A stretch of 64,000 nucleotides of DNA from Ignavibacterium sp. (GTDB lineage Bacteria > Bacteroidota > Ignavibacteria > Ignavibacteriales > Ignavibacteriaceae): assembly GCA_032027145.1 (NCBI GenBank), contig JAVSMP010000001.1:1826903-1890902 (forward strand), written 5' to 3'. Below the pieces are notes generated by a model. The model ran no database searches and was not told the origin of the DNA. It saw only the letters and a list, made by a program, of their open reading frames with translations. The position numbers and the translations under genes are program-made. This document shows, piece after piece, positions 2,699-19,700 of this stretch. The stretch's first letter is position 1. The number at the start of each line of letters is the position of its first letter.

Positions 2699-2728
2699 CA
2701 CGCTCAAAATAGAAATTATGAGGAAAAA

Positions 2729-3037
2729 ATGTTCGCAGTAGTAGATATTTTAGGACAACAGTTTAAAGTATCAGAAAATAATAAATATTATGTACCGCGC
2801 TTAACTCAGGAACCTGAAAGTGAAATAACATTTGATAAGGTTTTATTGTTAAGTGATGGTAAGGAAACTAAGGTTGGTAATCCGGTTGTTGAAGGTGCTA
2901 AAGTTACAGCAAAGGTTCTTGAGCATTTAAAAGATGATAAAGTTCTTGTTTTCAAAAAGAAAAGAAGAAAAGCATATCAAAAGTTGAATGGTCACAGACA
3001 ACAATTAACCAGAATAGAAGTTACCCAGATAGGATAA
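2729..3037 (+). CDS. rplU: 50S ribosomal protein L21
   Basis: Ribosomal protein L21, 102 residues, the usual length. It begins [16 protein letters not shown] and ends with the basic 23S rRNA-binding segment, including [17 protein letters not shown] and TRIEV. It is followed after 13 bases by rpmA, the normal bacterial pairing. A GAGG element sits just before the ATG. Confidence 0.98.
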
Positions 3038-3050
3038 AGGAGATTTAATT

Positions 3051-3308
3051 ATGGCACATAAAAAAGGTCAAGGTTCATCACGAAACGGAAGAGACAGTAA
3101 TGCACAGCGTCTTGGTGTTAAAAGATTTGGCGGTGAGAATGTGCTTGCTGGTAATATTTTAGTCAGACAAAAAGGAACAAAATTTCATCCCGGCGTTAAT
3201 GTTAAAAGAGGCGGAGACGATACTTTGTTTGCAGTTGCCGATGGAATTGTAAAGTTTGAAGTTAAACGCGGTGACAGAAAATATGTAAGTGTTTATCCCG
3301 TTAATTAA
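3051..3308 (+). CDS. rpmA: 50S ribosomal protein L27
   Basis: Ribosomal protein L27, 85 residues. It starts directly with [16 protein letters not shown], so it has the mature N-terminus that reaches the peptidyl-transferase centre and no cleavable extension of the Firmicutes type. The conserved GENV and GTKFHPG segments are present. AAGGAG lies 8-9 bases before the ATG. It is the last gene of the rplU-rpmA unit and is followed by a strong terminator. Confidence 0.98.
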
Positions 3309-3362: not shown

Positions 3363-3384
3363 TTAATCAAAATCATTTTTTAAA

Positions 3385-3417
3385 ACAAACCCAACCTCTT
3401 TAAGAAATTGGGTTTGT
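3385..3417 (-). terminator. Hairpin at the 3' end of the T9SS protease gene (repeat copy 1)
   Basis: Arms ACAAACCCAA and TTGGGTTTGT lie just downstream of the minus-strand stop at 3430. No long U run follows, so termination is plausible rather than clear. Closely related hairpins occur at 11429-11461 and 17966-17998, also after genes encoding a T9SS C-terminus. Confidence 0.5.
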
Positions 3418-3429
3418 GAAAGTAACATT

Positions 3430-6147
3430 TTACTTAAGCAGCATCATCTTTCTGGAAGAAATGTATTCGCCGGATTGTAATCTATAGATGTAAACACCGC
3501 TTGCCAGTTGTGATGCATTAAAGCTTACTTCATATCTGCCAGCAGTTTTTTGTTCATTAACCAATGTTGCCACTTCACTACCAAGTATATCATAAACCTT
3601 AAGTGTAACAATTCCATCTTTTGGCAGTTGGTATTTAATAGTTGTGCTTGGATTAAATGGATTCGGATAATTTTGTGCCAACTCATAAGTTGTTGGTAAT
3701 CCTTCACCTTTGAAGTTCCTTTTTATTAAATTTGATTTTTCAAGGTTAATATCATCCCGCTGGAAATCAGATATAAACAAGTTAACATCTTTACTAACAG
3801 TAGTAAATAATCTCAGAAAGTAATCTCCGCTTTCTATGCCCGAGCAATCCACAAGGTAACCGGTATTATTATATTCATCTACGTTTGATTTGTTATAAGT
3901 AATATTATCAAAGGTACCAATAACCTGATTTGTTGCCGAATTAACAAGCTCACATTTAAAGTTTACATAAAAAATGTCTGTTAATACTGAATCAGCCAGA
4001 GAAGGGTTTACAACATAATAATAATTTGAAAAAATCAGTTCACTTTGAGAGTTTAGATTAAATGATTCAGTTCTTGCAAACTCGTTTAATTCTTCCAAAC
4101 TATTAACAGGCAGCGTATCTATTCTTTCAATAAATTGGATAGTTTGACCATTTAATGACACATCTCCGATATTAAATAAAAACTCCATACCATTTTTTTC
4201 AACAACACCTGCTCTGCCGTAGCTTATATCTGCAATTTCAGTTTCGCCGATTTTTGATAAACCTCCCTGAACAAAATTATTTGTACATTTATTCAACAGG
4301 TATGGAGCGGGTGTTGAAGTATTAAAAACCATTACCTTAATGTTATCGAAACTGCTTCCGTTACTAACCATTGTTTGTATTCCGCTTGTTGATAAATTAG
4401 CAATTGTACTGTAGTTGCCATTAGAGTTTCGTTTAACAAATTTGGAATACAAACCATTACTTTCGCTCCAGGTTATTATTGAACCAGCTGAAGAATTGAT
4501 TGAATTGTTATTTGTAAAATTAACATTGTTACTAAAATTTGTAGAACCACCCCAACTGTTGTTATAACCAGCCTTAACAACGACAGCTTCTCTTTTTAAC
4601 CCGTAGTCATTTTCTTTTGCTATGATTTTTGATTGAGTGTTATTATATGCTCCCAGCCAGCTAACAAGAAGATAGGTTGGTGAGCCACTTGAAACACTTA
4701 TATTAGGATAATTGTTTTTTGTAAAACCACTGCCGTCGGATAAAATATTGATAGGATTGTACCACCAAGTAGCTGTGTTCTTAATATAAGCCTGTTTATA
4801 ATTTATTTTATTTAAGGATTCAAACACAAGATGAAAATTTTGTGGAAATACTGCAATAGACGGATTTATTGAATTGGCATCTGTCTCGGGAATTGAGTTT
4901 TCTGAGCCCCAATTCCAGTTACCCCCAATTTTCCATTTTGTTTTTTCTTTTAATCCTTCAGTGCTGTTTTTCCGATATACAACAGTTATAAAATACGCAC
5001 CAGCACCTACAATGGGTTTTGCATTACCGAAATATGAAACTGGATATTGAGCCAAGAACTGTTCCGATATATAGTGATAAATACCGGAACTTGTAGGTTG
5101 ATAATCTATTAACTTAATATATGTATTAGAAGGATTGCCGGGGGAGTATTTTTCAAAAACTATATAAACAATATTACCGTAATAAGCTATGGCAGGATTT
5201 TTAGCATCAACATCAACCCATTGTTCTTCAGCCCACTGACCATCAAAGTTTGAAGTTAAGCTGTGTGTATAGTAAACATTTCCCATAGATTCATATACCA
5301 AATGATATATCCCGTTATCTGTTCTTACCATTTTACGCTGACTGTTGCTGCTTATACCTGTTGTTGAATTAGACATAAGTTGTCCTTTTAATGTAGCGAT
5401 TGCAACAGCGTTTGGAGAGTTAAATACAATCCCGGTTTCTGCACCCGGAGATTGAATTGTAACACCTGAACCACCCCATCCAATAGGATAGAACTTTCTG
5501 TTTTGACCATTAACTGAAATTATCTGCTCATCAGGCATACCGACTTTGTAGTAGGGTTTATTAGGATTTTGTGGATCAGGTGTTTGTCCCAGGAAGACGC
5601 CTTTGTAAACATCCCCGTCGTAACTGGTTGAATAATCAGGCATAAATGGAGATGGTTGCTCTCTAAAAGGGGCACTCATACCTTGATTGCGTAAACCATA
5701 TGGTGGTTCCGTTGTATCAGCTAACCACGGGTCTTTGAATTTAATATTACCACCACTTAAAGTTGTACCCTCAAGACTGTTTTTGATTGTGATACCAGTA
5801 ATTTTGGGTATGAATCTTGAAAAAACTTGAGTTGTTGTAGCTTTGAGTGAAAGTGTATCCCAATTTCTATAACATTTATTAGAAAGATTATCTTCCCACC
5901 TGTTAAATTTTTCGTAACTCAATGGTTTAAAATCCTGAATAGAAAGGAAATGATGTTTATCCAATGACAAAGTAATTGGTTGCGCCGGAGGAACTGAATT
6001 CCATATTGAGTTATCCCAGTAGGAAGCTTGACCAAATGGTTGATTGTCATTGCCTAATTGCTTCAAATAAAATGTAACAAAAGGTTCAATAAACCCTGTT
6101 GTTATCAGGGAAAATTTCTGAGTGCTTATAGTACCTTTATGCGAGAC
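3430..6147 (-). pseudogene. 3' part of IS-interrupted S8 protease: substrate region and T9SS type A sorting domain
   Basis: This is the downstream remnant of the subtilase gene that starts at 9264. The frame is open from the IS edge; reading from it gives VSHKGTISTQKFSLITTG, the end of a subtilase domain. A TTG at 6066 could be a start, but it would give an 878-residue product without a signal peptide, so independent function is doubtful. The C-terminal 80 or so residues form a T9SS type A signal (QNYPNPFNPSTTIKYQLP, ending SSRKMMLLK). From the stop to about 4678 the DNA appears identical to 11474-12722 in the neighbouring metalloprotease gene. With the IS and one TSD copy removed, this part joins the 5' part in frame, 1476 codons plus stop. 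Confidence 0.88.
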
Positions 6148-6197
6148 TGTATTGGTTCAGCGGAAAATGGAATTTGGTGTTAATTAAATAAGGTAGA

Positions 6198-7157
6198 TTA
6201 GCTTGCATATCTAACCTCAATTCTTTTCAGTTTAGCTTCTTTAAGTTTTCGTTCTCTTACTTTCAGCTTTTCTTCAACTCTGTCAATAAGAAAATCTTCA
6301 GGTGTTAAATAAAACAACGAACTGTGAAGTCTTTTAGTATTGTAGTAATCAATATAAGATGAAATCTGTTTGCGTGCATCATCAAGATTGATTAAAGAGG
6401 TTTTCATTAAGCAGTCCTGATGAATAGTTCTATGGTATCGTTCGATCTTGCCATTACTCTGAGGATAAGCAACAGAGGTTCTTATATGCTGAAGTCCTAG
6501 AAGCTTCAGATATTCAGCAAAGTCTTTGGAAATAAACTGAGGACCATTATCTGAAATGATTCTTGGCTTTGTGCCGGGGTACTTCTCTAAAGCTCTCTGC
6601 AAGGTTAACTGAACATCAAACTGTTGCATACTTCGTCTTAGTTCGTGATGAACTATATATCGTGAGTAACCATCAATAACAGAAATAAGAAACAGAAAAG
6701 TTCCGTGATAGTTAACATACTTAATATCGGTATGCCAGTGCTGGTGAGGAGCTGTTGGCTGATCAAAGCCACCTCCTTTAGAAGATCTTTTAACTTTATT
6801 CCACCTGTTAAGTAAGCCGGCAGCTTTAAGTATTCTGTAAGTAGTAGCAGGCGAAACAGCAACAACATTATCATCAATCATCTTGTAAGTAAGGCGTCTG
6901 TAACCTTCTACGGGATGAACTTTAGCATAGACAATAATGGCTTTCTTCTCCCAGTCCAGGCACCAATGTTCCTTGGAAGTCTTTCCGTTATGGTTATTTT
7001 TTACTCCTTTCCTCTCAATCCAGGAATAATATTTACTGGAACTAATGCCTAAAAGAGGAGTGATGCCTTTAAGCGGAATATCAGTCTTGAGTCTTATGAA
7101 GTTTACAAACTCCACAACATTATCTCTTACGTCAGGTTCAACCCACTTTCTGTTCAT
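6198..7157 (-). CDS. IS3-family transposase OrfB (DDE integrase)
   Basis: Catalytic part of the IS3-type transposase, 319 residues. An HTH_21-like segment (HPVEGYRRLTYKM, about 81-93) precedes the rve integrase core. The catalytic triad is D144 (WHTDIKYV), D203 (ISDNGPQF) and E239 (NGKIERYH), the DD(35)E spacing of the family. The ATG overlaps the orfA stop (ATGA). A run of eight A residues near the end of orfA could allow a -1 frameshift that makes an OrfAB fusion, which in this family is the transposase. Confidence 0.95.
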   Translation of the reverse strand: MNRKWVEPDVRDNVVEFVNFIRLKTDIPLKGITPLLGISSSKYYSWIERKGVKNNHNGKTSKEHWCLDWEKKAIIVYAKVHPVEGYRRLTYKMIDDNVVAVSPATTYRILKAAGLLNRWNKVKRSSKGGGFDQPTAPHQHWHTDIKYVNYHGTFLFLISVIDGYSRYIVHHELRRSMQQFDVQLTLQRALEKYPGTKPRIISDNGPQFISKDFAEYLKLLGLQHIRTSVAYPQSNGKIERYHRTIHQDCLMKTSLINLDDARKQISSYIDYYNTKRLHSSLFYLTPEDFLIDRVEEKLKVRERKLKEAKLKRIEVRYAS

Positions 7158-7480
7158 ATCTCCCCATCTATACTTTTTTTTATTTCGATGTTTTCTTTAA
7201 GCAGAAAGGCTATCGCCTCCTCACGATCTCTTAATTTAGACTGAAGCTTTTCAATCTTTTTCTGTTCCAGGGAGGTTTGTTTCTGATTAACTGATTTACT
7301 CTGAAAAATATCTTTAGCATATTCAAAGAGTTTTTTCTTCCAGTTATAGATGTCGTTAGGGTGAACCTGGTACTTTTCAGCAAGCTGGCTGATGGGAAGA
7401 TTGTTTTCAAGAAGTTCTCTAAGGATAAGAACTTTCTGATCCGGGGAGTAATGTTTTCTTTCTCTTTTTGTTTCGGACAT
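7154..7480 (-). CDS. IS3-family transposase OrfA (helix-turn-helix)
   Basis: A 108-residue DNA-binding subunit. The helix-turn-helix is LPISQLAEKYQVHPNDIYNW (about residues 28-47), as in IS3/IS911 OrfA; the rest, with SLEQKKIEKLQSKLRDREEA, looks like a leucine-zipper coiled coil. It contains the slippery run A AAA AAA near its end (plus-strand 7174-7181). In the -1 frame after that run there is no stop before orfB. Confidence 0.92.
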   Translation of the reverse strand: MSETKRERKHYSPDQKVLILRELLENNLPISQLAEKYQVHPNDIYNWKKKLFEYAKDIFQSKSVNQKQTSLEQKKIEKLQSKLRDREEAIAFLLKENIEIKKSIDGEI

Positions 7481-7542
7481 TAGAATTTCCTTTCTATTTT
7501 TACATTACACAAAATTACGAAATTCCATTTCCTTCTGAAGCA

Positions 7543-9264
7543 TTACAAGACTACAATTGTATAGTATCCAGCGCCAGGGGATTGTAAAAATATTTGTTCA
7601 ACATTGTCCCTATTATTATCACCAGTTATTGCTGCAGAAGATGGACTTGCTGAATTTAATTTATATGGATAATAAGTTACTCCGCCTTTTATTAATCGTA
7701 CATCAAGATCTCTCATAAGTATTGGTCCACCAACCATATTAACCGGTGGTATGTCGTTCCACGTTAAAGTTATTTTTATTGGCTGAGTTCCGTCATTATA
7801 AAGATTACTTATTGTACGCGGTTGACCATTTAACAAATCCATTTCCTGAATTGTTGTCGGGTTAGTCTGATCTAGCGAAATAAGCTGTGCAGCTTTGTAA
7901 GTATTTAACAGACCCCAGCCATATTTATAGTCTGGTCCAGGATGATCACCGGATTCATCGGCAGAATGAATTAGTATAGCCTTAACAGTAGAGGAAAGCG
8001 GAACATATCCACTATGAGTATTTTTGTAATGTTGTAAAAGCAAAGCTATTGAACCAGTAACATTAGGTGCCGCCATAGAGGTACCAGACATATTACCAAA
8101 AGTTAAATTTGGTAAAGTTGAGTAGAGTTCATCCCCATTTGCAACAATATCAGGTTTAATTCTTCCGTCTTTAGTTGGTCCCCAGGAACTGAAATCTGTG
8201 TTTACTTGCTTTACGTCAGATGAATTTTGATATCCATTAAAGATATCATCAATTGCACCAACTGTAATTATATTTTTCGCCACACCATCAGGTGGCAGAC
8301 AATTAAATCCATTGGTTACTTCTCCATCCTTTGGATGATAACTTGTACTAGTAACCCAATTTTGACCATTCCAAACCCAATGTTGAGTATTCGGTTCAGG
8401 GCCTTGTCCACGATCATTGCCTGCTGCCCATACGATTGTATAATATGGAGCATTAAAAGCAATTTCATCGTAGTCAAAACTTGCTTCATTGTAATTTCCA
8501 AAATCCGGATCTTCAATATCCATATTTCCCGCCATCCAATACCAGGCATCTGAGCCCACTTTTCTTAGATCTCCCCATTCCCACCCGGTTATTGTAGCAT
8601 AAGAGTGATTTGAAAGAAGTATTCCGTTTGGAAAATTAGGATCAAGAAGTGCCGCAGCGTTTGTCATTTCAATTACATCTTCATTCCAATCTCTTGAAAT
8701 AATTATCGATTTACTTGCCATTCCTTTAGAATTAAAATTATCATCGTCAGCTACAATAGTTCCAGCAACGTGAGTAGCATGATCATCAATTGGTATGGTA
8801 TCCGGGTCAACATAGAAAACATGTTTCTGACCATAGGTCCCCTCTCTAAAAGATGTATGAAATTCATCAACAGCTCCCCCATCCCATAAACCAATATTAA
8901 TTCCACTTCCATCAAGATTAAATGGCGAAGACCAAACATCGTCCGTTGAAGTGGTTTGAGCAGCCACTCTATTAAAAGTTGTTCTATAAACAGGGCGTCC
9001 ATTTTTTATTTCTTTTAGTTCTATTGTCTTGCCATTTTTTGAACTTCTAATTAATAAATTAGGATTTTTTTTAATTAGATTATTTATTTTTTCTTTGTTT
9101 ATTTCACTTTTTTGTTTCTGTTTCTCCTTAAAAGATTTTAGAGCTAATGTGTCTGTATTACTGATTATTTGTGTTCTAACTTTTTCATCTAAATCATTTT
9201 GGGCATTAATCCTAAGTTGAACCAGACAAAACATTAATAAGAATAATAAAACTAGCTTATTCAT
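7543..9264 (-). pseudogene. 5' part of IS-interrupted S8 subtilisin-like protease
   Basis: A secreted serine protease of family S8, with residues 1-21 as signal peptide (ends LRINAQ). The catalytic triad is complete: D128 (GLWDGG), H162 (HATHVAGT) and S396 (GTSMAAPN), with oxyanion N283 (AAGNDRG). The frame runs into the IS after GYYTIVV and stops one codon later, so it ends inside the C-terminal beta domain and lacks the T9SS signal found in 3430-6147. A truncated product might still fold but would probably not be exported across the outer membrane by T9SS. GAGG precedes the start. The gene follows the lipoprotein gene on the same strand. Confidence 0.88.
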
Positions 9265-9291
9265 TTTTAAACCTCATTTTTGTATTATATT

Positions 9292-9328
9292 ATTGGACAA
9301 AAAAAAGCATAGCACTACAACTGTAGTG
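9292..9328 (-). terminator. Terminator after lipoprotein copy 1
   Basis: On the minus strand, the hairpin CACTACAGTTGTAGTG (9313-9328) is followed six bases later by a run of eight T. It lies between the lipoprotein gene and the S8 protease gene. A second hairpin (CCGTCATAGCA with TGCTATGGCGG, 9357-9385) has T-rich sequence on its plus-strand side. Confidence 0.6.
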
Positions 9329-9418
9329 TTTTTCAGAGTGCTGTTTGTCTATTATACCGTCATAGCAGCGTAATTGCTATGGCGGTTTATTTTATTGGCG
9401 GCGTATAAAACCTCGCTA

Positions 9419-10696
9419 TTAGTTTCTATATAATATTGTTATCAGTGCTTTATCATCCTGCCACCCAATGGTGGCTATTGTATTATTTTTAATTTGAATC
9501 TTTACATAAATATTATTTGACCCCGTATGGATCGAGTTCGAACTGTATCCGTTAAAATGAAAAATTGAGAGGTTTGAACTTAAACCAACAATATCATTAT
9601 ATGATTGACCGTTTACACTGAAAATAGTGTTTAGATCAGGCCTATCAGTTTTTTGCCATTTATCATTTTTATAAAAAACTATTCCATTCCCTGCAGTATA
9701 TACTAAATTATTTGATGCTGCCCAGACAGAATTTAGGAACATTCCCTGAATAACGTTAATTCTTGAAACATTATTATCACCATCTATCCTTAACAAAACA
9801 TTATCTGCAGCACAATACTTAACATATTCACCATTTTTGCTTTGAATTCCAGAAATATCACCTATTACTGATATTGTTCCGCTTTCAATCTTACTCCAGC
9901 TTTGTCCGTTGTAGTGAGCGATCTGCCCATTTACACCCACAGCATATATATTCTGACTATCTGTTCCCCAGAGTTTCCTTATAGATATCGGAACGCAATA
10001 AGTTCCTATTTGTGCTGTATCTGTTAATCGTGCTATCTGACTTCCTTGCATCCCAACCCAAATATCTTTTTCTGAAAATGCAAAAATCGATGAGGCTGCA
10101 TACGCATTTTGGTGCTGCTGTCCACATATCGTATAAAACATAATTCTGTGTAATTTCCATTCACTTCCATCCCAGTGCACTGCGTTATACATTGTGTAAC
10201 CATTAATGCTTGTATCTGCTATCATTATTTCTCCAACTGCCCAGATATTGTTTTCAGCTATTATTGCTACATCGTAAAGTGTGCTGCTGCCAATAGTGCC
10301 AAATGTCCAACTCTGGAAAGTAAAGTTGTGGCTGGTTGTGTCAAGCGTAGTAACAGAAAGTTCATTGCTTTTATTGTTAGATTGCTCAATTGTTGTAATG
10401 AACTTGTATGTTTGGTTTGGCAGCAGGGAATCAATGTAAAGTAGTGAGTCTGCGTTGCTCAGAATAATATTCTGAGTTACGGTATCACCAGTCGGGTTAA
10501 ATTGTTTTAGTGTTATGGTTGCTGGGTGTTGGAGATTGGTAGCAGTTAATTCAATCCACGCTTCAATGCAGGAAACATCTTCAAGCTTTAATTCAAGCGT
10601 TGGCTTTTCGCCATCCGGCGGTGGCGGCTCAGTTGTGTTGCAGGATGCTGAGATTAAGAGTAAGAGTATGAGTGAGAGTAAGGTGATGTTTTTCAT
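9419..10696 (-). CDS. Surface lipoprotein with beta-propeller-like repeats (copy 1)
   Basis: A 425-residue predicted lipoprotein. A hydrophobic leader ends in the lipobox ISASC (Cys19), followed by a proline-rich linker NTTEPPPPDG. Residues about 30-120 look like a fibronectin-III-type domain. The rest holds repeated units of the type NNIWAVG, HWDGSEW, NIYAVG, HYNGQSW, resembling beta-propeller blades. No catalytic motif is seen; a surface-anchored binding role is only a guess. It is the paralogue of 16117-17391: the first ~89 residues and the promoter region are nearly identical and the propeller part has diverged. AAAGG precedes the ATG. Confidence 0.75.
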   Translation of the reverse strand: MKNITLLSLILLLLISASCNTTEPPPPDGEKPTLELKLEDVSCIEAWIELTATNLQHPATITLKQFNPTGDTVTQNIILSNADSLLYIDSLLPNQTYKFITTIEQSNNKSNELSVTTLDTTSHNFTFQSWTFGTIGSSTLYDVAIIAENNIWAVGEIMIADTSINGYTMYNAVHWDGSEWKLHRIMFYTICGQQHQNAYAASSIFAFSEKDIWVGMQGSQIARLTDTAQIGTYCVPISIRKLWGTDSQNIYAVGVNGQIAHYNGQSWSKIESGTISVIGDISGIQSKNGEYVKYCAADNVLLRIDGDNNVSRINVIQGMFLNSVWAASNNLVYTAGNGIVFYKNDKWQKTDRPDLNTIFSVNGQSYNDIVGLSSNLSIFHFNGYSSNSIHTGSNNIYVKIQIKNNTIATIGWQDDKALITILYRN

Positions 10697-10810
10697 ATTG
10701 TTACCTTTGCCTTAAATAGGATTGTTTTGCGTAAATGTTTTTTTCTGTTGAAATGAAATTAAAAGAATAAAAAGATAAAAGAAACGTATCTCTTTTGTAT
10801 CTAAAAATTT

Positions 10811-10849
<39 letters not shown>

Positions 10850-11264
10850 CAATCGTGCCAGAAAGTTTAGTAATTTTTTTCAAAATAACCCTCAAGAAAA
10901 AATTTTTATAAAACAGTAAACTCAGGCAGAGAAACAGTCTTGAAATCAAGGCAGCAAAATTCATTCCTTCGCTAAAGGTTTATTTTCAGAGAGATTTTTT
11001 TTAACCAGGTAAAAAGAGGAAAAAGATAGTGTAAAATTTCCTAAGTTGTAAAAATTATAGTGATAAAATTGTCGTTAAATATTTTTTAGAATGGAACGCT
11101 GATCAGACTGATTTAATTAAGATAATTTAAGATCATAAGCGATCATAAAAATCAGCAGGCTGTTGTAGTAAGATATTATAGTGAACGAACTCCTGTTCGG
11201 TCAGAACGAGTAAATTTGTTTTTTAATTAAAGTTTAATAACCACAAAATTATTTTTCTAAAAGC

Positions 11265-11284
11265 GGACAGGGCAAGCCCAGTCC
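11265..11284. repeat. REP-like palindrome
   Basis: GGACAGGGCAAGCCCAGTCC is symmetrical apart from one A/A mismatch in each arm. It resembles short intergenic palindromic repeats. It is in the segment between duplication units and is absent from the matching place near 17.9 kb. Confidence 0.5.
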
Positions 11285-11428
11285 CTACAAAAAAATATAT
11301 TAGCAACTTATAAACGCAGTATATAGAACACAGTTTCTAATTGTATTAAGAGTCAATTAAAATATTGTGGCGAAAGAACTCCTGTTCGTTCAGGATTTAA
11401 GAAATAATTTTTATTTAAGTTTAATAAA

Positions 11429-11461
11429 ACAAATCCAATTTCTCAAAGAAATTGGGTTTGT
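11429..11461 (-). terminator. Hairpin at the 3' end of the metalloprotease gene (repeat copy 2)
   Basis: Arms ACAAATCCAATTTCT and AGAAATTGGGTTTGT with a 3-base loop lie just after the stop of the gene ending at 11474. Same family as 3385-3417 and 17966-17998. Good stem, weak U tract on the minus strand. Confidence 0.55.
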
Positions 11462-11473
11462 GAAAGTAACATT

Positions 11474-14400
11474 TTACTTAAGCAGCATCATCTTTCTGGA
11501 AGAAATGTATTCGCCGGATTGTAATCTATAGATGTAAACACCGCTTGCCAGTTGTGATGCATTAAAGCTTACTTCATATCTGCCAGCAGTTTTTTGTTCA
11601 TTAACCAATGTTGCCACTTCACTACCAAGTATATCATAAACCTTAAGTGTAACAATTCCATCTTTTGGCAGTTGGTATTTAATAGTTGTGCTTGGATTAA
11701 ATGGATTCGGATAATTTTGTGCCAACTCATAAGTTGTTGGTAATCCTTCACCTTTGAAGTTCCTTTTTATTAAATTTGATTTTTCAAGGTTAATATCATC
11801 CCGCTGGAAATCAGATATAAACAAGTTAACATCTTTACTAACAGTAGTAAATAATCTCAGAAAGTAATCTCCGCTTTCTATGCCCGAGCAATCCACAAGG
11901 TAACCGGTATTATTATATTCATCTACGTTTGATTTGTTATAAGTAATATTATCAAAGGTACCAATAACCTGATTTGTTGCCGAATTAACAAGCTCACATT
12001 TAAAGTTTACATAAAAAATGTCTGTTAATACTGAATCAGCCAGAGAAGGGTTTACAACATAATAATAATTTGAAAAAATCAGTTCACTTTGAGAGTTTAG
12101 ATTAAATGATTCAGTTCTTGCAAACTCGTTTAATTCTTCCAAACTATTAACAGGCAGCGTATCTATTCTTTCAATAAATTGGATAGTTTGACCATTTAAT
12201 GACACATCTCCGATATTAAATAAAAACTCCATACCATTTTTTTCAACAACACCTGCTCTGCCGTAGCTTATATCTGCAATTTCAGTTTCGCCGATTTTTG
12301 ATAAACCTCCCTGAACAAAATTATTTGTACATTTATTCAACAGGTATGGAGCGGGTGTTGAAGTATTAAAAACCATTACCTTAATGTTATCGAAACTGCT
12401 TCCGTTACTAACCATTGTTTGTATTCCGCTTGTTGATAAATTAGCAATTGTACTGTAGTTGCCATTAGAGTTTCGTTTAACAAATTTGGAATACAAACCA
12501 TTACTTTCGCTCCAGGTTATTATTGAACCAGCTGAAGAATTGATTGAATTGTTATTTGTAAAATTAACATTGTTACTAAAATTTGTAGAACCACCCCAAC
12601 TGTTGTTATAACCAGCCTTAACAACGACAGCTTCTCTTTTTAACCCGTAGTCATTTTCTTTTGCTATGATTTTTGATTGAGTGTTATTATATGCTCCCAG
12701 CCAGCTAACAAGAAGATAGGTTTGTAAGCCATTTGAAATACTTATATTAGGATAATTGTTTTTTGTAAAACCACTTCCAGTAGAAACATTAATTGCTGCT
12801 TCATACTGCCAGGGACCCGCGTAACTTTCTGTAACTGCATATTTATACATTATCGAATTCTGACTTTCGTAAACCAAATGAATATGAGCATAACTTTCAA
12901 CCACAGAAGGATTTATAGAATATAAATTTGTTCCCGGGATTGCTGCTTCACTGCTCCAGTTCCACAAGCCGGTATTTATATTAAACCACTTCGTTCTTTC
13001 TTTTAATCCTTCAGTTGAGTTTTTTCTGTATGCAATAAATAATTGAACCTGGTTATATGAGATAACAGGTTTTGCATTACCAAAGTATGATACAGGAAAG
13101 TTAGCTACTTCCTCACATTCATTTGCAACCTGTGTGTAAACACCGCTTGCATTCGGAGCATAGGTTGCTAAATAAATTATTGCATCAGGGCCGTACACGG
13201 GATCATAAAACTCAAGAACAATTTTAACATTATTAACGTGATATTCTATTGCCGGGTTTTTAGCGTTTGTCATTAAAAGTTCTTCCTGCGACCAACTGCC
13301 ATCAAGGTTTGAGGTTAAGCTGTGAGTGTAGTAAACATTTCCCATAGATTCATATACCAAATGATATATTCCGTTATCTGTTCTTACCATTTTACGCTGA
13401 CTGTTGCTGCTTATTCCTGTTGTTGAATTAGACATAAGTTGTCCTTTTAATGTAGCGATTGCAACAGCGTTTGGAGAGTTAAATACAATCCCGGTTACTG
13501 CACCCGGAGATTGAATTGTAACACCTGAACCACCCCATCCAACAGGATAGAACTTCCTGTTTTGACCATTAACTGAAATTATCTGCTCATCAGGCATACC
13601 GACTTTGTAATAGGGTGGTTTCCAAGTATGGTAAACTGGATCGTACCCTTGATTTAAGAAGACGCCTTTGTAACTGCTTGAATAATTGGGATTAAAGGGC
13701 GATGGTCTCGGTAAAAACGGTGCATTCATTCCTTGACTTCTAATTCCATATGGAGGTTCATTAAAATCAACAAGCCAAGGATCCATAAATTCAACCTGCC
13801 CTACGTTAATTCCAGTTGATTCGAGAGAATTTTTGATTGTAACTCCATTTACCGCTTCAGAAAAATGAGATATAACCTCTCTCGTTCCAGATTTAATACT
13901 TAGTGTATCCCAGTTACGATAACGTTTATTATTGAGGTTATCATCCCAATAATTAAATTTCTGATTTGTGCCTGGTTTCCAATTATGACTTGATAAGAAA
14001 TATTTTTTAGTGTTTTCCATAGCCACAGGTTGATCAGGTTCAATATAATTCCAAAAAGAATAATCCCAATATGCAGCCTGCCCGAATGGAGTGCCTGAAG
14101 CATCGAGTTGTTTTATGGCCACACCAGGAATAATGATATATTCCCTTTCAACCAGTGAACTCCAGGTACCATTCAAATAAGTTCTTGCTTTCATTTTTAT
14201 TGTACCTATATTTTCCCATGTATATGTTTTAGGATTAGGAGATATTTCGACTTGATAACCCGGAATACTCGGATCATAAGGTTCTGAGCCATCATTAGTG
14301 TAATTCATAAAACATCTTAAACCTGATTCCCAGCTTAATGTAGTTTTTAATCCTTGCGGGTAGGTTCCACTAATTGGAAAAAGTTCAGGTACAGTAATTT

Positions 14401-15940
14401 CAATTCCGATGTTATAGACTGCTGTTGTAGTTAAACTCGGTATCATTCCAGTCTTAAACGCCTTTGCTTTGATAGTAGTAAGGGTAGTAATCTCTAGTGA
14501 CGGCGGGAATACAGGTGAATTGATAGTAGGCTCTGTGCCGTTTATTGTGTACCTTATAGTTGCGCCGGATGTTGGACAGTATGATGTAACAGTTACGGGA
14601 TTTTCATAAGTGTCAGGTGGCGGTGTGAAGATTGGTTTCGCAACCTGCTGTTGCTCTGAAATTGAAAAAAGATTTGTTCCGCCAAAAGCACCGCCAAATT
14701 GAATCTTAATTCGGTACATTCCATCTGGTACATTTGCAGGAACTGTCCAGACATATTGATTCAATCCATCATTTGCCATTCCAAGTGTACAGACAGTCAT
14801 TATAAAATTATCATACGAATCGAGTAAATCAAGGTTATATGAGCCTCCTTCGTTGTCGATCCATTTTATTGTATCAACTGCACCTTTTTGAAGTGAGACT
14901 CCAGGTTCAGGATGTATAAAAGTAGCAAGTCGGTTTATATTCCATCCTAAATCTTTTAGAATGGCTAGTCCAACCTCGCCGGGTGAATGAATTACTTCTG
15001 CCTGATCGAATTGAGGAGTCATTAAGGAATTGCTATTTCCTTGCGGAAATGTAGCTTCATCAAGATGGGAAATACTGGAGCCTGCTTTCCATCCTGCAGG
15101 TGCATATAGTTTCGGAAGCCTATATCTTCCGTTTTGAATCCAGGCATTATCACCGCTAAAATAAACATTGTCGCTCGTTAGCTTAGTTTTTAGTTCCGTA
15201 GAATGATTGGGATAACTGACCAAGAAATCTAAAGCTGGATAATAGCTGTTTAACGATGTATATATATCATAAATAGATGAATGAGAATTAGTGTCAACGG
15301 GAAAACCACTTTTACCTTTATATCCATAACTTCCGCTTACATTAAAAAAATCAATGTATCCTAATCCGTGTGCTGTTTCGTGCAAAATAACACTTACCAT
15401 ATCGACTTTATCTTTCTGTGGTACACCATCTGTACCAAAATACCAACTTACACTATCATTGGAATTAATATTTATTATCATCTCGTAATCATCATCTTCG
15501 TTTAAATTCTGATTCATAAGATGTTCGGCAAGCGCAATGGGGTATTGTACATTTTCTTTCGGTAAAGAAGGTGAATTATAATAAGTTGTCGGACCACAAT
15601 TAGCTAACGTATATACCCCAGTGCTACTGTAACCCAGATCCTTCCAATTTATAAGTATGTTAATCGTCTGATCAGAATTTATTAAGAATTCCCAGATTTT
15701 TATCGCATATTCTATTGCTGTCCTCGCCTGCCCTGGAGGCATAGGATCAGTGTAGGAAATTTCAAAGTTAGAAGTTGCGATTTTGCCTAGCACTGTTCTG
15801 TATTTATAAATTGAAGGCGGTTCAACTACTGTATAAGCATTATTATGTGTGCCTTCTAAAACAGAGGCGTTATATTGGGGCAGTATGCTAGTGTTACACA
15901 GAGCCCAAAACAACAGGATAATGAAAAAACAGTTTTTCAT
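11474..15940 (-). CDS. Secreted zinc metalloprotease (metzincin-like) with T9SS type A sorting domain
   Basis: A 1488-residue secreted protein, complete. Signal peptide is about residues 1-22. The protease domain carries HETAHGLGYID (H187, E188, H191), a metzincin-type HExxHxxGxxD motif. Residues about 440-515 resemble a chitobiase C-terminal (CHB_HEX_C) domain (ATIRYTINGTEPT), and a second related segment follows (CFMNYTNDGSEPYD). The second half is shared with the neighbouring S8 gene and ends with a T9SS type A signal (QNYPNPFNPSTTIKYQLP, ending RKMMLLK). Export through T9SS to the cell surface or medium is expected. AAAGGAG precedes the ATG. The last ~420 codons appear identical in DNA to the unit 1 copy, pointing to recent conversion. 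Confidence 0.88.
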   Translation of the reverse strand: MKNCFFIILLFWALCNTSILPQYNASVLEGTHNNAYTVVEPPSIYKYRTVLGKIATSNFEISYTDPMPPGQARTAIEYAIKIWEFLINSDQTINILINWKDLGYSSTGVYTLANCGPTTYYNSPSLPKENVQYPIALAEHLMNQNLNEDDDYEMIININSNDSVSWYFGTDGVPQKDKVDMVSVILHETAHGLGYIDFFNVSGSYGYKGKSGFPVDTNSHSSIYDIYTSLNSYYPALDFLVSYPNHSTELKTKLTSDNVYFSGDNAWIQNGRYRLPKLYAPAGWKAGSSISHLDEATFPQGNSNSLMTPQFDQAEVIHSPGEVGLAILKDLGWNINRLATFIHPEPGVSLQKGAVDTIKWIDNEGGSYNLDLLDSYDNFIMTVCTLGMANDGLNQYVWTVPANVPDGMYRIKIQFGGAFGGTNLFSISEQQQVAKPIFTPPPDTYENPVTVTSYCPTSGATIRYTINGTEPTINSPVFPPSLEITTLTTIKAKAFKTGMIPSLTTTAVYNIGIEITVPELFPISGTYPQGLKTTLSWESGLRCFMNYTNDGSEPYDPSIPGYQVEISPNPKTYTWENIGTIKMKARTYLNGTWSSLVEREYIIIPGVAIKQLDASGTPFGQAAYWDYSFWNYIEPDQPVAMENTKKYFLSSHNWKPGTNQKFNYWDDNLNNKRYRNWDTLSIKSGTREVISHFSEAVNGVTIKNSLESTGINVGQVEFMDPWLVDFNEPPYGIRSQGMNAPFLPRPSPFNPNYSSSYKGVFLNQGYDPVYHTWKPPYYKVGMPDEQIISVNGQNRKFYPVGWGGSGVTIQSPGAVTGIVFNSPNAVAIATLKGQLMSNSTTGISSNSQRKMVRTDNGIYHLVYESMGNVYYTHSLTSNLDGSWSQEELLMTNAKNPAIEYHVNNVKIVLEFYDPVYGPDAIIYLATYAPNASGVYTQVANECEEVANFPVSYFGNAKPVISYNQVQLFIAYRKNSTEGLKERTKWFNINTGLWNWSSEAAIPGTNLYSINPSVVESYAHIHLVYESQNSIMYKYAVTESYAGPWQYEAAINVSTGSGFTKNNYPNISISNGLQTYLLVSWLGAYNNTQSKIIAKENDYGLKREAVVVKAGYNNSWGGSTNFSNNVNFTNNNSINSSAGSIITWSESNGLYSKFVKRNSNGNYSTIANLSTSGIQTMVSNGSSFDNIKVMVFNTSTPAPYLLNKCTNNFVQGGLSKIGETEIADISYGRAGVVEKNGMEFLFNIGDVSLNGQTIQFIERIDTLPVNSLEELNEFARTESFNLNSQSELIFSNYYYVVNPSLADSVLTDIFYVNFKCELVNSATNQVIGTFDNITYNKSNVDEYNNTGYLVDCSGIESGDYFLRLFTTVSKDVNLFISDFQRDDINLEKSNLIKRNFKGEGLPTTYELAQNYPNPFNPSTTIKYQLPKDGIVTLKVYDILGSEVATLVNEQKTAGRYEVSFNASQLASGVYIYRLQSGEYISSRKMMLLK

Positions 15941-15988
15941 TGTAATCTCCTTTCAGTTTAAGATTAATTGTTTTATTATTATCTTAAA

Positions 15989-16085
15989 CCGCATACAAAA
16001 AAAAGCATTAGCTTGCAAAGCTTTTGCGCGTTAAAAATTTTTGTATGCAGCTTAACTCATCCCTGCGTGGCAGCGCGGGGATGAG
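15989..16085 (-). terminator. Hairpins between lipoprotein copy 2 and the metalloprotease
   Basis: On the minus strand a small hairpin AGCTTTGCAAGCT (16010-16022) precedes a run of eight T, as in unit 1. A larger hairpin with arms CTCATCCCTGCG and CGCGGGGATGAG (16056-16085) sits next to the lipoprotein stop; its T run is on the plus-strand side. Confidence 0.55.
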
Positions 16086-16116
16086 ATTTTTTTATTTCAT
16101 TAGCATTTACCTCGCT

Positions 16117-17391
16117 TTAATTATTTCTCCTAATAATTGTTATTACTGCTTTTTCTCCTTGCCACCCCACAGTAGAAATCACATTTCCTTTTACATCTAA
16201 TTTCAAAAAAATATTTTCTACCGGCACATTGATCGAACCCCAGTTATAACCATTGAAGTGCAAGATTATCCCTAAAGAGCTTATTCCAAACACATCATTA
16301 TAATTTTGGCCTTTGATTCTATAGAGAGTATTTACCAAAGGATCATTAATTATTTCCCATTTATAATTTTTATATAAGGCATCATTTTCTCCTCCAACAA
16401 CGTATATTAATTGGTTTGTATAACCCCAAATTGAAAAAATATGCATACCGGATTCAGCTTCAATTCTTGATAAATTTTTGTTTGCATCTAACTTCAACAT
16501 CGCATTATAAGCGGCTAAATATTTATTGAAACCCCCATTGCCATCTGATATTCCCCATATATCATTTATGTTCAAATCCGTTCCGCTTTCTATCTTACTC
16601 CAGCTTTGTCCGTTGTAGTGGGCTATGTTGCCATTGTTGCCTACGGCATATAAATCACTACTGCTGCTACCCCACATTTTATTTATTTGCCAACCATCAC
16701 CGTTTGGCATTAATGGCCACCCACTCATATGAACTGTGTAACTTACACCATCCCATTTTATGCCACCATCAAACCATACATCATTTTCTGAAAAAGCAAA
16801 AACTGTTCTTCGAGGATATTCACCGTGCCCAGCAATTTTCTTCAATTCCCAGATTTGTCCGTCCCAATGCACTGCATTATATTTTGTGTAACCGTTAATG
16901 CTTGTATCTGCAACATAAATTTCTCCCACAGCCCAGATATTATTTTCATTTATTATAGCAACATCGTAAAGTGAGCTGCTGCCTGCTGTACCTCCAAACG
17001 TAAATGTTTCAAATGTAAAGTCGTGGCTGGTGGTGTCCATTGTTGTAACGCTTAACTCGCTGCTTGCATTGTTGTATGGCTGCATTGCTGCAAGAATTTT
17101 ATATGTTTGGTTTGGTAGGAGTGAGTCTATGAAAAGTAATGAGTCTGCGTTGCTCAGAATAATATTCTGAGTTACGGTATCACCAGTCGGGTTAAATTGT
17201 TTTAGTGTTATGGTTGCTGGGTGTTGGAGATTGGTAGCAGTTAATTCAATCCACGCTTCAATGCAGGAAACATCTTCAAGCTTTAATTCAAGCGTTGGCT
17301 TTTCGCCATCCGGCGGTGGCGGCTCAGTTGTGTTGCAGGATGCTGAGATTAAGAGTAAGAGTATGAGTGAGAGTAAGGTGATGTTTTTCAT
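16117..17391 (-). CDS. Surface lipoprotein with beta-propeller-like repeats (copy 2)
   Basis: A 424-residue lipoprotein, paralogue of 9419-10696. It has the same leader and lipobox (ISASC, Cys19) and the same N-terminal domain to about residue 89, with Y/F and similar single changes. After that the blade-like repeats differ (NNIWAVGEIYV, DLYAVGNNGNIAHYNGQSW), with one conserved island, HYNGQSWSKIESGT. No enzyme motif. It precedes the metalloprotease gene as copy 1 precedes the S8 gene, so lipoprotein plus protease is the duplicated unit. AAAGG precedes the ATG. Confidence 0.75.
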   Translation of the reverse strand: MKNITLLSLILLLLISASCNTTEPPPPDGEKPTLELKLEDVSCIEAWIELTATNLQHPATITLKQFNPTGDTVTQNIILSNADSLLFIDSLLPNQTYKILAAMQPYNNASSELSVTTMDTTSHDFTFETFTFGGTAGSSSLYDVAIINENNIWAVGEIYVADTSINGYTKYNAVHWDGQIWELKKIAGHGEYPRRTVFAFSENDVWFDGGIKWDGVSYTVHMSGWPLMPNGDGWQINKMWGSSSSDLYAVGNNGNIAHYNGQSWSKIESGTDLNINDIWGISDGNGGFNKYLAAYNAMLKLDANKNLSRIEAESGMHIFSIWGYTNQLIYVVGGENDALYKNYKWEIINDPLVNTLYRIKGQNYNDVFGISSLGIILHFNGYNWGSINVPVENIFLKLDVKGNVISTVGWQGEKAVITIIRRNN

Positions 17392-17965
<574 letters not shown>

Positions 17966-17998
17966 ACAAACCCAATTTCTTTGAGAAATTGGGTTTGT
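17966..17998 (-). terminator. Hairpin at the 3' end of the sugar dehydrogenase gene (repeat copy 3)
   Basis: Perfect 15-base arms ACAAACCCAATTTCT and AGAAATTGGGTTTGT around a TTG loop, just downstream of the stop at 18009. Strong stem without a clear U run. Third member of the hairpin family. Confidence 0.65.
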
Positions 17999-18008
17999 CA
18001 GAGAAAAG

Positions 18009-19700
18009 TTATTTAAGAACTGTCATTTTTCTTGTAGCACTGAATTTTTCAAAAGAGAGTTTATAAAAATAAATTCCGCTTATTAAATCAGATGCATCAA
18101 ATTTTATTGAATAAAATCCTGCTTTCTTTTGTTCATTTAACAATGCTTTTACTTCATTTCCCAGCACATCATAAATTTTTAATGATACGAATCCAGAAAC
18201 CGGTATTTGAAATTCAATAGTAGTAGTCGGGTTAAACGGATTAGGATAATTCTGTCCAAGCATAAAACCATCGGGCATACCCAGATCAACCGAAACTGTT
18301 TTCAAATATTCATAAGACCCATCGTAGTTTATTTGTTTTAACCGATAATGATAAATACCTGACTTAACTGATTCATCAAGATAGGTGTATTCATTTTTCT
18401 CAGTTGTAGTTCCATTACCACTGATAAAAACAAGTTCTTTAAATTCTGTAACATCTGAAGCTCTTTCAATAACAAATCCCGCATTATTTGTCTCGGTAGA
18501 TGTAAACCAATTAAGTCTGACTTTTCCTTGAACAACAGTTGCAGTAAATGAGGTTAATTCAACCGGTACAAGAGTCGGAATAAAAGAATAAATTTTTCCG
18601 TTAAATGATAAAAGATACAATTCATTGCTTTCATCAACTCCAAAAGAAGAAATTGAACCGGCTGCAGTAGTAATTTGTGTATTGGTTGTATTTATTCCGT
18701 CATATTCAAGTGCCCATACTCTTCTGCTTACATAATCACCATAAATATATTTTCCAACCAGTTCAGGAACATTTATTCCGCGGTAAACAAATCCGCCTGT
18801 AATTGAATAACCTAAAGAATGAGAATATTCCCAGATAGGAAATTCATAAGTTCCGTTGCAGCCGCTTGAATTATAAACATGATTTCCTTCATAACATCTC
18901 CATCCATAATTCTTACCTTTTTTGATTATATCAATCTCTTCCCAATCACCCTGTCCAACATCTCCACACCACAAACTATCAGTAACAGGATCGAAACTAA
19001 TCCGCCAAGGATTTCTCATTCCCCAGGCAAAAATTTCTTTTCGTATATTAGTGTTTGTACTATCAACGAAAGGATTATCAGCCGGTATTCCGTAATTAAG
19101 CGGCGCTTGCGGATTATCAACATCAATTCTTAAAATCTTACCTAAGAGTTTAGTAATATTTTGTGCATTATTTTGTGGATCGCCGCCTGAACCGCCGTCA
19201 CCTGAGCCTATATATAGATATCCATCTGGACCAAATACAACCGCTCCGCCATTATGGTTTGAATAAGGCTGATTATATGTAATAAGGATTTGTTCGGAGT
19301 TTTTATCGGCAGAATCTGGATTTGTAGATGAGACCTTAAATCTTGAGATTACAGTTCTCAGTGGACTTGGTGCAGTATAATTAACATAAAAATATCCGTT
19401 AGATTCATAGTTTGGATGAAAAGCTAAACCAAGCAGACCAGTTTCACCACCTGATGTTACACGATCCGTAATATCAAGAAATAGTTTTGTTGATTGCGCA
19501 TTTTCATCGTTTGGAAATACCCGTATTCGTCCATCTTGTTCGACTACAAAAATTCTGTTAGTGCCGTCGCCTGCATTTTGTAAATCCAATGGGTCTGAAA
19601 AGGATAGGTTTGGAAATGCTACCCTGAAGTTAAATTGAGCAAAGTTTGAAGTGCTTATAAGTATTAATAATAATACTATAAGATTCATTTTCTTTACCAT
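18009..19700 (-). CDS. PQQ-type (GSDH) sugar dehydrogenase with T9SS type A sorting domain
   Basis: A 563-residue secreted protein with signal peptide about 1-21. Residues about 25-370 form a glucose/sorbosone dehydrogenase six-bladed propeller: GDGTNRIFVVEQDGRIRVF, GLLGLAFHPNYESNGYFYVNY, HNGGAVVFGPDGYLYIGSGDGG and GKILRIDVDNP are typical. Soluble family members oxidise sugars with PQQ, but some members have other roles. A linker with a VELTSFTATV segment and the T9SS signal (QNYPNPFNPTTTIEFQIP) follow. Strong AAAAGGAGG before the ATG. It lies 20 bases after the GH13-like gene on the same strand, so it may be the last gene of that transcript. Confidence 0.87.
   Translation of the reverse strand: MVKKMNLIVLLLILISTSNFAQFNFRVAFPNLSFSDPLDLQNAGDGTNRIFVVEQDGRIRVFPNDENAQSTKLFLDITDRVTSGGETGLLGLAFHPNYESNGYFYVNYTAPSPLRTVISRFKVSSTNPDSADKNSEQILITYNQPYSNHNGGAVVFGPDGYLYIGSGDGGSGGDPQNNAQNITKLLGKILRIDVDNPQAPLNYGIPADNPFVDSTNTNIRKEIFAWGMRNPWRISFDPVTDSLWCGDVGQGDWEEIDIIKKGKNYGWRCYEGNHVYNSSGCNGTYEFPIWEYSHSLGYSITGGFVYRGINVPELVGKYIYGDYVSRRVWALEYDGINTTNTQITTAAGSISSFGVDESNELYLLSFNGKIYSFIPTLVPVELTSFTATVVQGKVRLNWFTSTETNNAGFVIERASDVTEFKELVFISGNGTTTEKNEYTYLDESVKSGIYHYRLKQINYDGSYEYLKTVSVDLGMPDGFMLGQNYPNPFNPTTTIEFQIPVSGFVSLKIYDVLGNEVKALLNEQKKAGFYSIKFDASDLISGIYFYKLSFEKFSATRKMTVLK

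What the first reader, a model, noticed from the sequence alone, without database searches (positions are those of the whole stretch)
3403..13620. Two different protease heads (S8 serine and zinc metzincin) on a C-terminal half that is patchily identical in DNA
The last 1276 bases (3403-4678 and 11447-12722) look identical, 4690-5250 versus 12730-13300 is strongly diverged, and about 5265-5560 versus 13315-13610 is again about 97% alike. This mosaic suggests repeated gene conversion, with the non-homologous catalytic domains kept apart. It reads like a modular system in which proteases of different classes share one targeting and display module.
Basis: partly seen in the sequence, partly recalled or inferred. 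Interest (0 to 1): 0.7.

Follow-up and report, generated by a model that had tools for sequence, protein, structure and literature searches.

The report
Mosaic surface proteases with swapped heads
Two neighbouring bacterial genes carry unrelated protein-cutting heads on the same secreted tail, and comparison with relatives shows that the units are patchworks assembled by repeated DNA exchange between genes and between species, a possible natural way of giving one display scaffold new enzymes.

Summary
In detail: 1,277 bases are identical, the next 538 are 57% alike, then 281 are 98% alike. Two corrections. The S8 gene is cut by an IS3-family element at 6148-7547. The repeat unit is two genes, a lipoprotein-like propeller protein plus the protease, and its 5' end is homogenised too.

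Relatives show more than conversion between two copies. The metzincin-like gene is a three-source mosaic: the head follows its G002 orthologue (dS 0.066), S2 and S4 follow the S8 copy, S3 follows a differently headed gene of G005 (dS 0.083; baseline 0.70-1.17). The 14.6-kb island has G005-like edges and is absent from G002. The site that holds the metzincin-like unit in G002 is empty here.

Tails of this kind occur in 39 of 79 genomes searched, this one included, on S8, M10, M43, trypsin-like, phospholipase-C-like and uncharacterised heads. All 30 evaluable genes with an S1 match have the lipoprotein upstream, against 5 of 17 without.

Best reading: a type IX-secreted modular surface hydrolase system whose heads are swapped by homologous recombination in shared arms. 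It works like Tannerella KLIKK proteases but is not one.

The parts
3402..4678 (-). S4: 3' part of the S8 unit's tail (end of propeller, Ig-like region, T9SS sorting domain, stop codon and 3' end), identical to 11446-12722
3430..6066 (-). Tail ORF of the S8 unit (878 codons as listed; its TTG start is an ORF-listing artefact of the IS split)
   Evidence: PF18962, 41.8 bits against cut-off 27
6148..7547 (-). IS3-family insertion element (two transposase ORFs 7154-7480 and 6198-7157; flanked by AGAC/AGAC on the + strand) that splits the S8 gene; 1 of 4 full copies found in the genome
   Evidence: 4 differences in 1,400 to copy 3
7543..9264 (-). S8 subtilase head (signal-peptide-like start; catalytic D, H and S motifs seen by eye; last 5 bases of this ORF lie in the IS)
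9419..10696 (-). Partner lipoprotein-like gene of the S8 unit (P0006, 425 aa)
10461..10872 (.). 5' arm: start of partner gene plus upstream region, identical to 17156-17575 apart from one 8-base gap
11446..12722 (-). S4 of the metzincin-like gene, identical to 3402-4678
12746..13412 (-). S3 of the metzincin-like gene: patch of G005 (L051) type, about 96% DNA identity, dS 0.083
13400..13620 (-). S2 of the metzincin-like gene: patch of S8-copy type, about 98% to 5341-5561
13660..16600 (-). Payload block of G002 type: C-terminal part of the partner gene, whole metzincin-like head, S1 (16201-16500 is equally like a G005 contig)
11474..15940 (-). Intact metzincin-like protease gene, 1,488 aa (HETAHGLGYID; PF13290; PF18962)
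16117..17391 (-). Partner lipoprotein-like gene of the metzincin-like unit (P0007, 424 aa; predicted Ig-like domain plus propeller)
3376..17956 (.). 14.6-kb island absent from the corresponding site of G002
2701..3200 (+). Left island flank of G005 type (99-100%) beside an otherwise G002-like region
18009..19700 (-). GSDH-family gene with T9SS sorting domain; its 3' part (to about 18700) is G005-like, the rest G002-like or mixed

Best explanation
Shown by sequence: two tandem two-gene units (propeller lipoprotein-like gene, then hydrolase head + S1 + propeller + Ig-like region + type IX sorting domain) sit in a 14.6-kb island whose edges are of G005 type; the second unit carries a G002-type (native-lineage) payload (partner C-terminus, metzincin-like head, S1) between arms of other origin. 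Inferred history: the island entered by homologous recombination in the flanking genes; a unit was duplicated in tandem; the payload of one copy was replaced by the native metzincin-like payload through crossovers in the partner gene and at the S1/S2 border; the other locus was lost here (or never held it); one propeller stretch (S3) was overwritten by a G005-type gene; the 3' arm was homogenised again; an IS broke the S8 copy. Inferred function: the tail is the common export, anchoring and glycan- or surface-binding module (T9SS), the head supplies the hydrolase, and the lipoprotein, probably co-transcribed, is a partner that goes with the S1-bearing tail across catalytic classes, most likely a surface docking or latency factor. 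Identical arms let new heads be plugged into an expressed, exported scaffold.
For: Mosaic: sliding identities; 0 of 2,000 shuffles reach the A-B, B-K5 and B-M2 segment scores; S1 tree B+M2 100/99, B+A rejected p 0.0014, B+K5 p 1e-86; S2 B+A 81/86, B+M2 rejected p 0.022, B+K5 p 1.4e-5; S3 B+K5 95/92, B+A rejected p 0.004, B+M2 p 0.005. Timing: dS 0.066 head to G002 (baseline 0.013-0.086 in 7 flanking genes), 0.083 S3 to G005 (baseline 0.70-1.17 in the same 7), 0.000 S4 to the S8 copy over 324 codons. Import of the island's edges: gene 2729-3037 dS 0.000 to G005 but 0.565 to G002, GSDH gene 0.296 and 0.53; painting; G002 without the island. Second locus: the G002 site of the metzincin-like unit is empty here, while G006 has the unit some kilobases from the same fumarase-like gene. 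Modularity. Partner: 30 of 30 against 5 of 17; 26 of 41 partner homologues lie within 8 kb of a tail match, random mean 0.67, maximum 6. Export: sorting domain over cut-off in both tails, SprA_N 170 bits and 150 scored sorting-domain matches in the genome. Folds.
Against: No population data: donor and order of events are inferred from six genus members, this one included, several of them metagenome assemblies by title. In G002 the unit is flanked by a 407-base direct repeat (95%) of the neighbouring gene, of which this genome has one copy: excision here or insertion there would both fit, so the direction of the move is open. The perfect S4 identity could be inflated by consensus polishing of repeats. 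S1 is dS 0.150 from G002, above the baseline, and the partner's residues 130-424 as a whole are 0.466; 16201-16500 is 96-100% like a G005 contig as well as 97-99% like G002, so the left border of the payload is not clean. S2 is short (81/86). The AU groups were chosen after the sliding window was seen. 15 of 41 partner homologues stand away from any tail match, and a G005 partner C-terminus has ordinary genes behind it. The S1/partner rows are not independent, and both matches fade with divergence. M10 and phospholipase-C-like heads were found on tails without an S1 match and without a partner. The S8 unit is now broken.
Confidence: 0.62

Rival explanations
1. Ordinary tandem duplication inside one genome, head replacement, then gene conversion between the two copies only.
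For: Tandem units with identical 5' and 3' arms; S2 groups the two copies and S4 is identical.
Against: S3 groups with G005 at dS 0.083, the island's edges are of G005 type, and the payload lies at another locus in G002 and G006.
Confidence: 0.15
2. Assembly artefact: the identical and patchy stretches come from repeat collapse, chimeric joins between strains, or short-read polishing of repeats.
For: G005 contigs end in or beside these repeats; S4 has no difference in 415 codons; how this genome was sequenced is unknown to me.
Against: The reading frame runs through every junction of the 1,488-aa gene, the IS has an intact target repeat, the G005-type flank and S3 match an independently assembled genome, and both empty sites are seen in single-contig assemblies.
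Confidence: 0.1
3. Uneven constraint: the similar patches are slowly evolving parts of two old paralogues, the dissimilar ones fast parts.
For: Some positions in S2/S3 (around SQRKMVRT and YHLVYESMG) are conserved in the relatives aligned.
Against: Synonymous sites show the same pattern between the two copies: dS 0 in S4, 1.39 in S3, 2.85 in S1; S4 differs freely between species (1.8-2.3 to K2 and K5).
Confidence: 0.02
4. Same architecture, other purpose: the partner lipoprotein is an inhibitor that protects the cell from its own surface proteases, as potempins are thought to do for KLIKK proteases (potempin role recalled, not read).
For: Lipoprotein-like gene upstream on the same strand, as reported for all KLIKK proteases; the C-terminal part of the partner lies in the same G002-type block as the head.
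Against: One partner family goes with S8, metzincin-like, M43, HExxH and uncharacterised heads alike, which fits a tail partner better than a class-specific inhibitor.
Confidence: 0.25

Closest known systems
KLIKK proteases of Tannerella forsythia (PMC4404884; abstract and first of two parts of the Results read)
   Same: T9SS-type cargo; [quoted passage not shown] each gene is preceded by a putative lipoprotein gene.
   Different: The shared part there is a 30-residue motif plus an 86-residue CTD ending KLIKK with a variable stretch between; here it is an approximately 800-residue S1 + propeller + Ig-like region plus CTD, ending MMLLK. The KLIKK lipoproteins share no significant similarity with one another; here they are one family. 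Mosaic exchange between species was not described in what I read.
Porphyromonas gingivalis RgpA/Kgp/HagA adhesin domains (PMC5266723; abstract and section on haemagglutinin-like adhesins read)
   Same: T9SS surface proteases whose C-terminal adhesin modules are near-identical between genes and are reshuffled by recombination, incongruent with strain phylogeny.
   Different: Heads are gingipains (or none in HagA); modules are cleaved-adhesin and DUF2436 domains, not a propeller; no partner lipoprotein payload in what I read.
Photorhabdus PLL/PHL lectins and CylK (fold only)
   Same: The propeller of the tail model superposes with Z 26-31, rmsd 2.9-3.2, 307-328 residues.
   Different: 10-14% identity; propellers match one another generally; no binding site tested; not fused to proteases or a sorting domain as far as I know (recalled).

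Membership tests
Type IX secretion cargo (type A sorting domain) | C-terminal Por_Secre_tail domain | tested here: met
   PF18962 41.8 and 40.9 bits (cut-off 27), TIGR04183 43.2 and 42.3 (cut-off 23):
Type IX secretion cargo (type A sorting domain) | Secretion machine in the same genome | tested here: met
   SprA_N PF14349 170.2 bits, over cut-off, in a 2,325-aa frame; other components not tested
Type IX secretion cargo (type A sorting domain) | Sec signal peptide and actual export | not testable with these tools
   Hydrophobic N-termini seen by eye; no predictor, no experiment
KLIKK proteases | C-terminus ends in KLIKK | tested here: not met
   Both tails end SSRKMMLLK
KLIKK proteases | Several catalytic classes on one C-terminal module | tested here: met
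KLIKK proteases | Lipoprotein gene upstream | tested here: met
   Both window units; 37 of 49 evaluable tail ORFs within 4 kb; here one homologous family, unlike KLIKK
Gingipain/HagA adhesin system | Gingipain catalytic or cleaved-adhesin domains | tested here: not met
   No such Pfam match in either gene
Peptidase S8 (subtilase) | Pfam S8 model over cut-off; catalytic Asp/His/Ser | tested here: met
   125.8 bits against 21.8; DGG, HATHVAGT and GTSMAAP seen; nearest solved structures SubHal 5fax and 1wmd
Metzincin metalloproteases | HExxHxxGxxH/D zinc motif | tested here: met
   HETAHGLGYID; pattern found
Metzincin metalloproteases | Curated family model over cut-off | tested here: not met
   No Pfam protease model at E 0.001; NF038122 35.7 bits against cut-off 80; no PDB sequence relative. 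Hence 'metzincin-like' only
IS3 family insertion sequence | IS3 transposase, two overlapping ORFs, target repeat | tested here: met
   NF033516 181.9 bits (cut-off 160), 4-base overlap, AGAC repeat
PLL-type propeller lectins | Glycan-binding propeller | tested here: inconclusive
   Fold match Z about 27; binding not tested

The most novel reading that the evidence does not exclude
An exchangeable-cartridge system: two-gene payloads (C-terminal part of a surface lipoprotein plus catalytic head plus S1) are moved between loci and species by homologous recombination in two conserved arms (promoter and lipoprotein N-terminus on one side, propeller and sorting domain on the other), so that one exported, lectin-like display scaffold is loaded with hydrolases of several classes, somewhat as toxin tips are exchanged on conserved delivery proteins.
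Probability: 0.4. Interest if true: 0.75.

Novelty: new variant of a known kind. Interest (0 to 1): 0.62.

Why it matters
Shared C-terminal domains on type IX cargo and reshuffled adhesin domains are known from oral pathogens. Here a much larger shared tail, one recurring lipoprotein partner family and a dated, three-source mosaic are seen in bacteria whose named relatives are Ignavibacteriales metagenome genomes, with the exchanged block and its arms mapped to within some hundred bases. This makes head swapping on a surface scaffold directly testable (partner binding, glycan binding, strain comparison), and it points to naturally modular secreted hydrolases. In the held open-access library I saw no description of this tail, the partner family or the mosaic, but only the top of each list was seen: 15 of 183, 12 of 31, 12 of 81, 10 of 36, 8 of 79. 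Subscription papers are not covered.

Tried and rejected
Uniform divergence: rejected. Conversion between the two local copies as a full account: rejected for S3. A class-specific inhibitor as the obvious role of the partner: weakened because one family accompanies many heads. PDB sequence search with the metzincin-like head gave only a hit to titin at E 0.33. Pfam and NCBIfam gave nothing for the partner at E 0.001. Of 20 heads scanned with Pfam, 10 had no family at E 0.01 and 1 only a BNR repeat under cut-off; I did not resolve them. One search clustered 36 heads of 60 or more residues, some of them cut by contig ends. The three AU tests for S4 could not run because A and B are identical. 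Foldseek ranks for the tail (GH43, PorZ, sialidases and others) had TM 0.09-0.25 of the query, too weak for a family claim. In one search, 49 ORF rows were evaluable; for the table I dropped two downstream pieces of one broken gene (L067), leaving 47, and sorted them by hand by where the tail match begins (up to 126, or 204 and more). The coordinates were copied by hand. The IS chance figures printed use rough gene lengths and are not relied on. Because this leaves the direction of the move open I lowered the main confidence from 0.66 to 0.62 and the novel case from 0.42 to 0.40.
Full report
The two stretches are as described: identical over 1,277 bases (3402-4678 and 11446-12722), 57% alike over the next 538, 98% over 281 (5270-5550), 60% beyond. 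In one search the longest run of agreement between the two copies over the 1,800 polymorphic columns of a six-sequence alignment is 798, while 2,000 shuffles never exceed 48.

Anatomy. On the minus strand the region reads: GSDH-family gene (18009-19700), partner lipoprotein-like gene P0007 (16117-17391), metzincin-like protease (11474-15940), partner P0006 (9419-10696), S8 head (7543-9264), IS3-family element (6148-7547), S8 tail (3430-6066). The IS splits the S8 gene; the same sequence AGAC stands on both sides (6144-6147 and 7548-7551, read). Four full copies are in the genome; the window copy differs from copy 3 at 4 of 1,400 positions, so the break is probably recent. Both proteases belong to two-gene units, and the unit's 5' end is homogenised too: seven successive 60-column windows at 100% (10461-10872 and 17156-17575, one 8-base gap), then 92-97%. 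So the outer ends are alike and the middle differs.

A three-source mosaic. I compared the tails with homologues in four other genomes (G002 twice, G004, G005, G042). B is the metzincin-like gene, A the S8 copy, M2 the G002 orthologue of B, K5 and K2 genes of G005 and G002 with an unrelated, uncharacterised head. From about 14258 to 13650 B follows M2 (83-100% per 60-column window); from about 13590 to 13400 it follows A (about 98%); from 13412 to 12746 it follows K5 (88-100%, mean about 96%), where A is at 44-78%; from 12722 to 11446 it equals A, and K5 is at about 71%. Shuffles never reach the corresponding segment scores (0 of 2,000 each). Trees by segment put B with M2 in S1 (100/99), with A in S2 (81/86), with K5 in S3 (95/92); the competing groupings tested are rejected (p 0.0014 and 1e-86 in S1; 0.022 and 1.4e-5 in S2; 0.004 and 0.005 in S3), with the caution that the groups were chosen. 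In S4 A and B are identical, so no test could run.

Dates. Synonymous distances: in seven flanking genes, this genome to G002 0.013-0.086 and to G005 0.70-1.17. Two genes at the island's edges break the rule: the gene at 2729-3037 is identical to G005 (0.000) but 0.565 from G002, and the GSDH gene is 0.296 and 0.53. The metzincin-like head is 0.066 from G002, the native distance; S1 is 0.150. S3 is 0.083 from G005, about a tenth of the baseline. S4 is 0.000 between the copies (324 codons; 91 more in the sorting domain), while the partners' first 95 codons are 0.094, so the 3' arm was probably homogenised after the duplication. Painting in 100-base windows shows G005-type DNA (89-100%) at 2701-3200, 3401-3900, 11101-11900, 12801-13400 and 17801-18700, G002-type (89-100%) at 13701-16600 (of which 16201-16500 also matches G005 at 96-100%), and nothing for the S8 head (7601-9400) in the loci held from G002, G004, G005 and G006; whole-genome DNA search of seven relatives gave one listed match there, 69% over 291 bases in G005 (list cut).

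Two empty sites. In G002 the left and right flanks of the island abut: 14.6 kb (3376-17956) are absent. Conversely, the flanks of the G002 locus that holds the metzincin-like unit are contiguous in this genome (L162), and about 6.3 kb with the unit are missing. In G002 a 407-base direct repeat (95%) of the neighbouring gene brackets the unit; recombination between such repeats would remove the unit and leave what is seen here, but insertion in the G002 lineage would fit as well. G006, of another genus, has the unit some kilobases from the same fumarase-like gene (name recalled) as G002, which favours that place as the older one. The borders of the G002-type block (about 16600 inside the partner gene, about 13650 at the S1/S2 border) lie in the shared arms.

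One kind of tail, many heads. A tail search without the sorting domain matches 39 of 79 genomes, this one included. Heads of the ORFs recovered fall into 17 sequence clusters (36 heads). Of 20 heads scanned, catalytic families over the Pfam cut-off are S8 (L074), M43 (L053, L079), M10 (L050 in this genome, L057), trypsin-like (L084) and zinc-dependent phospholipase C (L069); L076 has an HExxH motif and sub-cut-off matches to DUF6055 and DUF2268; L080 has a sub-cut-off M10 match; 10 have none. The M10 and phospholipase heads sit on tails without an S1 match and without a partner. S8 and metzincin-like heads on S1-bearing tails with a partner also occur in other families of the order (L074, L080), so these fusions look old; what is recent is the exchange of pieces.

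A recurring partner. Homologues of P0006/P0007 lie upstream on the same strand within 4 kb of 37 of 49 evaluable tail ORFs, within 500 bases of 27. Sorted by S1, after dropping two pieces of one broken gene: 30 of 30 genes whose tail match includes S1 have the partner, 5 of 17 without it do (Fisher p 1.2e-7; relatives are not independent and both matches fade with distance). In six complete genomes 26 of 41 partner homologues lie within 8 kb of a tail match (random placement mean 0.67, maximum 6); 15 do not, and in G005 a partner C-terminus that is 97% like P0007 is followed by ordinary genes. The partner has a nearly invariant Cys at position 19 after a hydrophobic stretch (lipoprotein signal judged by eye).

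Folds. The partner model (pLDDT 87.6) is an Ig-like N-terminal domain (by strand pattern) and a propeller (best Foldseek hit YCF48; Z about 28 to virginiamycin B lyase). The tail model (pLDDT 76.5, pTM 0.69) has a propeller at 239-617 that superposes on CylK (Z 30.8, rmsd 3.1, 328 residues) and Photorhabdus lectins (Z 26-28), followed by beta-rich regions and the sorting domain. Propellers match one another widely, so lectin function is a suggestion only. The genome has SprA and 150 scored sorting-domain matches, all over cut-off, of 183 candidates.

Mechanism. Shown: mosaic, three sources, two empty sites, IS break, tail on many heads, partner association. Inferred: the order of events, export, surface binding, docking of the partner. 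The simplest history is import of an island with G005-type edges by recombination in its flanking genes, tandem duplication of a unit, replacement of one payload by the native metzincin-like payload through the shared arms, a further S3 exchange, renewed homogenisation of the 3' arm, and IS inactivation of the S8 unit.

Known parallels. KLIKK proteases and gingipain adhesins show that T9SS proteases of oral bacteria share or reshuffle C-terminal modules; this system works like them but shares neither the KLIKK ending nor the gingipain and adhesin domains. The papers listed by searches 46, 86 and 87 include none whose title or abstract start describes this tail or Ignavibacteriales mosaics; beyond PMC4404884 and PMC5266723 I saw listings only.

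Noticed in passing
G000:C1:1217015-1218414 (L050 5016-6415): A second copy of the same IS interrupts another tail gene of this genome, one with an M10 matrixin head. Of seven related IS copies listed for G006, one splits a tail gene (L165 11973-13377), one splits a partner gene (L165 5245-6648), one abuts a tail match (L063 18049-19452) and one lies next to a tail gene (L063 9600-11003). The IS seems to favour, or to be tolerated in, these units.
   Followed up: partly
window 2701-3200: The gene at 2729-3037 (ribosomal protein L21 by recall) is identical in DNA to the G005 species but 10% different from the far closer G002: an allele swap beside the island.
   Followed up: partly
L055 3890-8066: Three tandem partner genes stand before one tail gene in G002; G006 has a similar array (G006:C1:1998316-2002964). 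The partner family itself seems to expand and recombine.
   Followed up: no
L056 6740-7146 and 13520-13925: A 407-base direct repeat (95%) of a neighbouring membrane-protein-like gene brackets the metzincin-like unit in G002: a possible excision or insertion scar.
   Followed up: partly
L056 8854-11634: The G002 metzincin-like gene is broken into three ORFs and reads HETAHGLGYNG where the window has HETAHGLGYID; decay or sequencing error.
   Followed up: no
L134: A tail and partner pair occurs in a record titled Calditrichota (Dive96_bin10.75), so the pair may reach beyond the order.
   Followed up: no
L049 4206-8000 (tail match G000:C1:610499-612106): A further intact tail gene of this genome with a head of no Pfam family and no partner homologue within 4 kb upstream.
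   Followed up: no
L069: A phospholipase-C-like head (PF00882) on this kind of tail, without a partner homologue within 4 kb upstream; the head of L059 clusters with it. Heads are not only proteases.
   Followed up: partly
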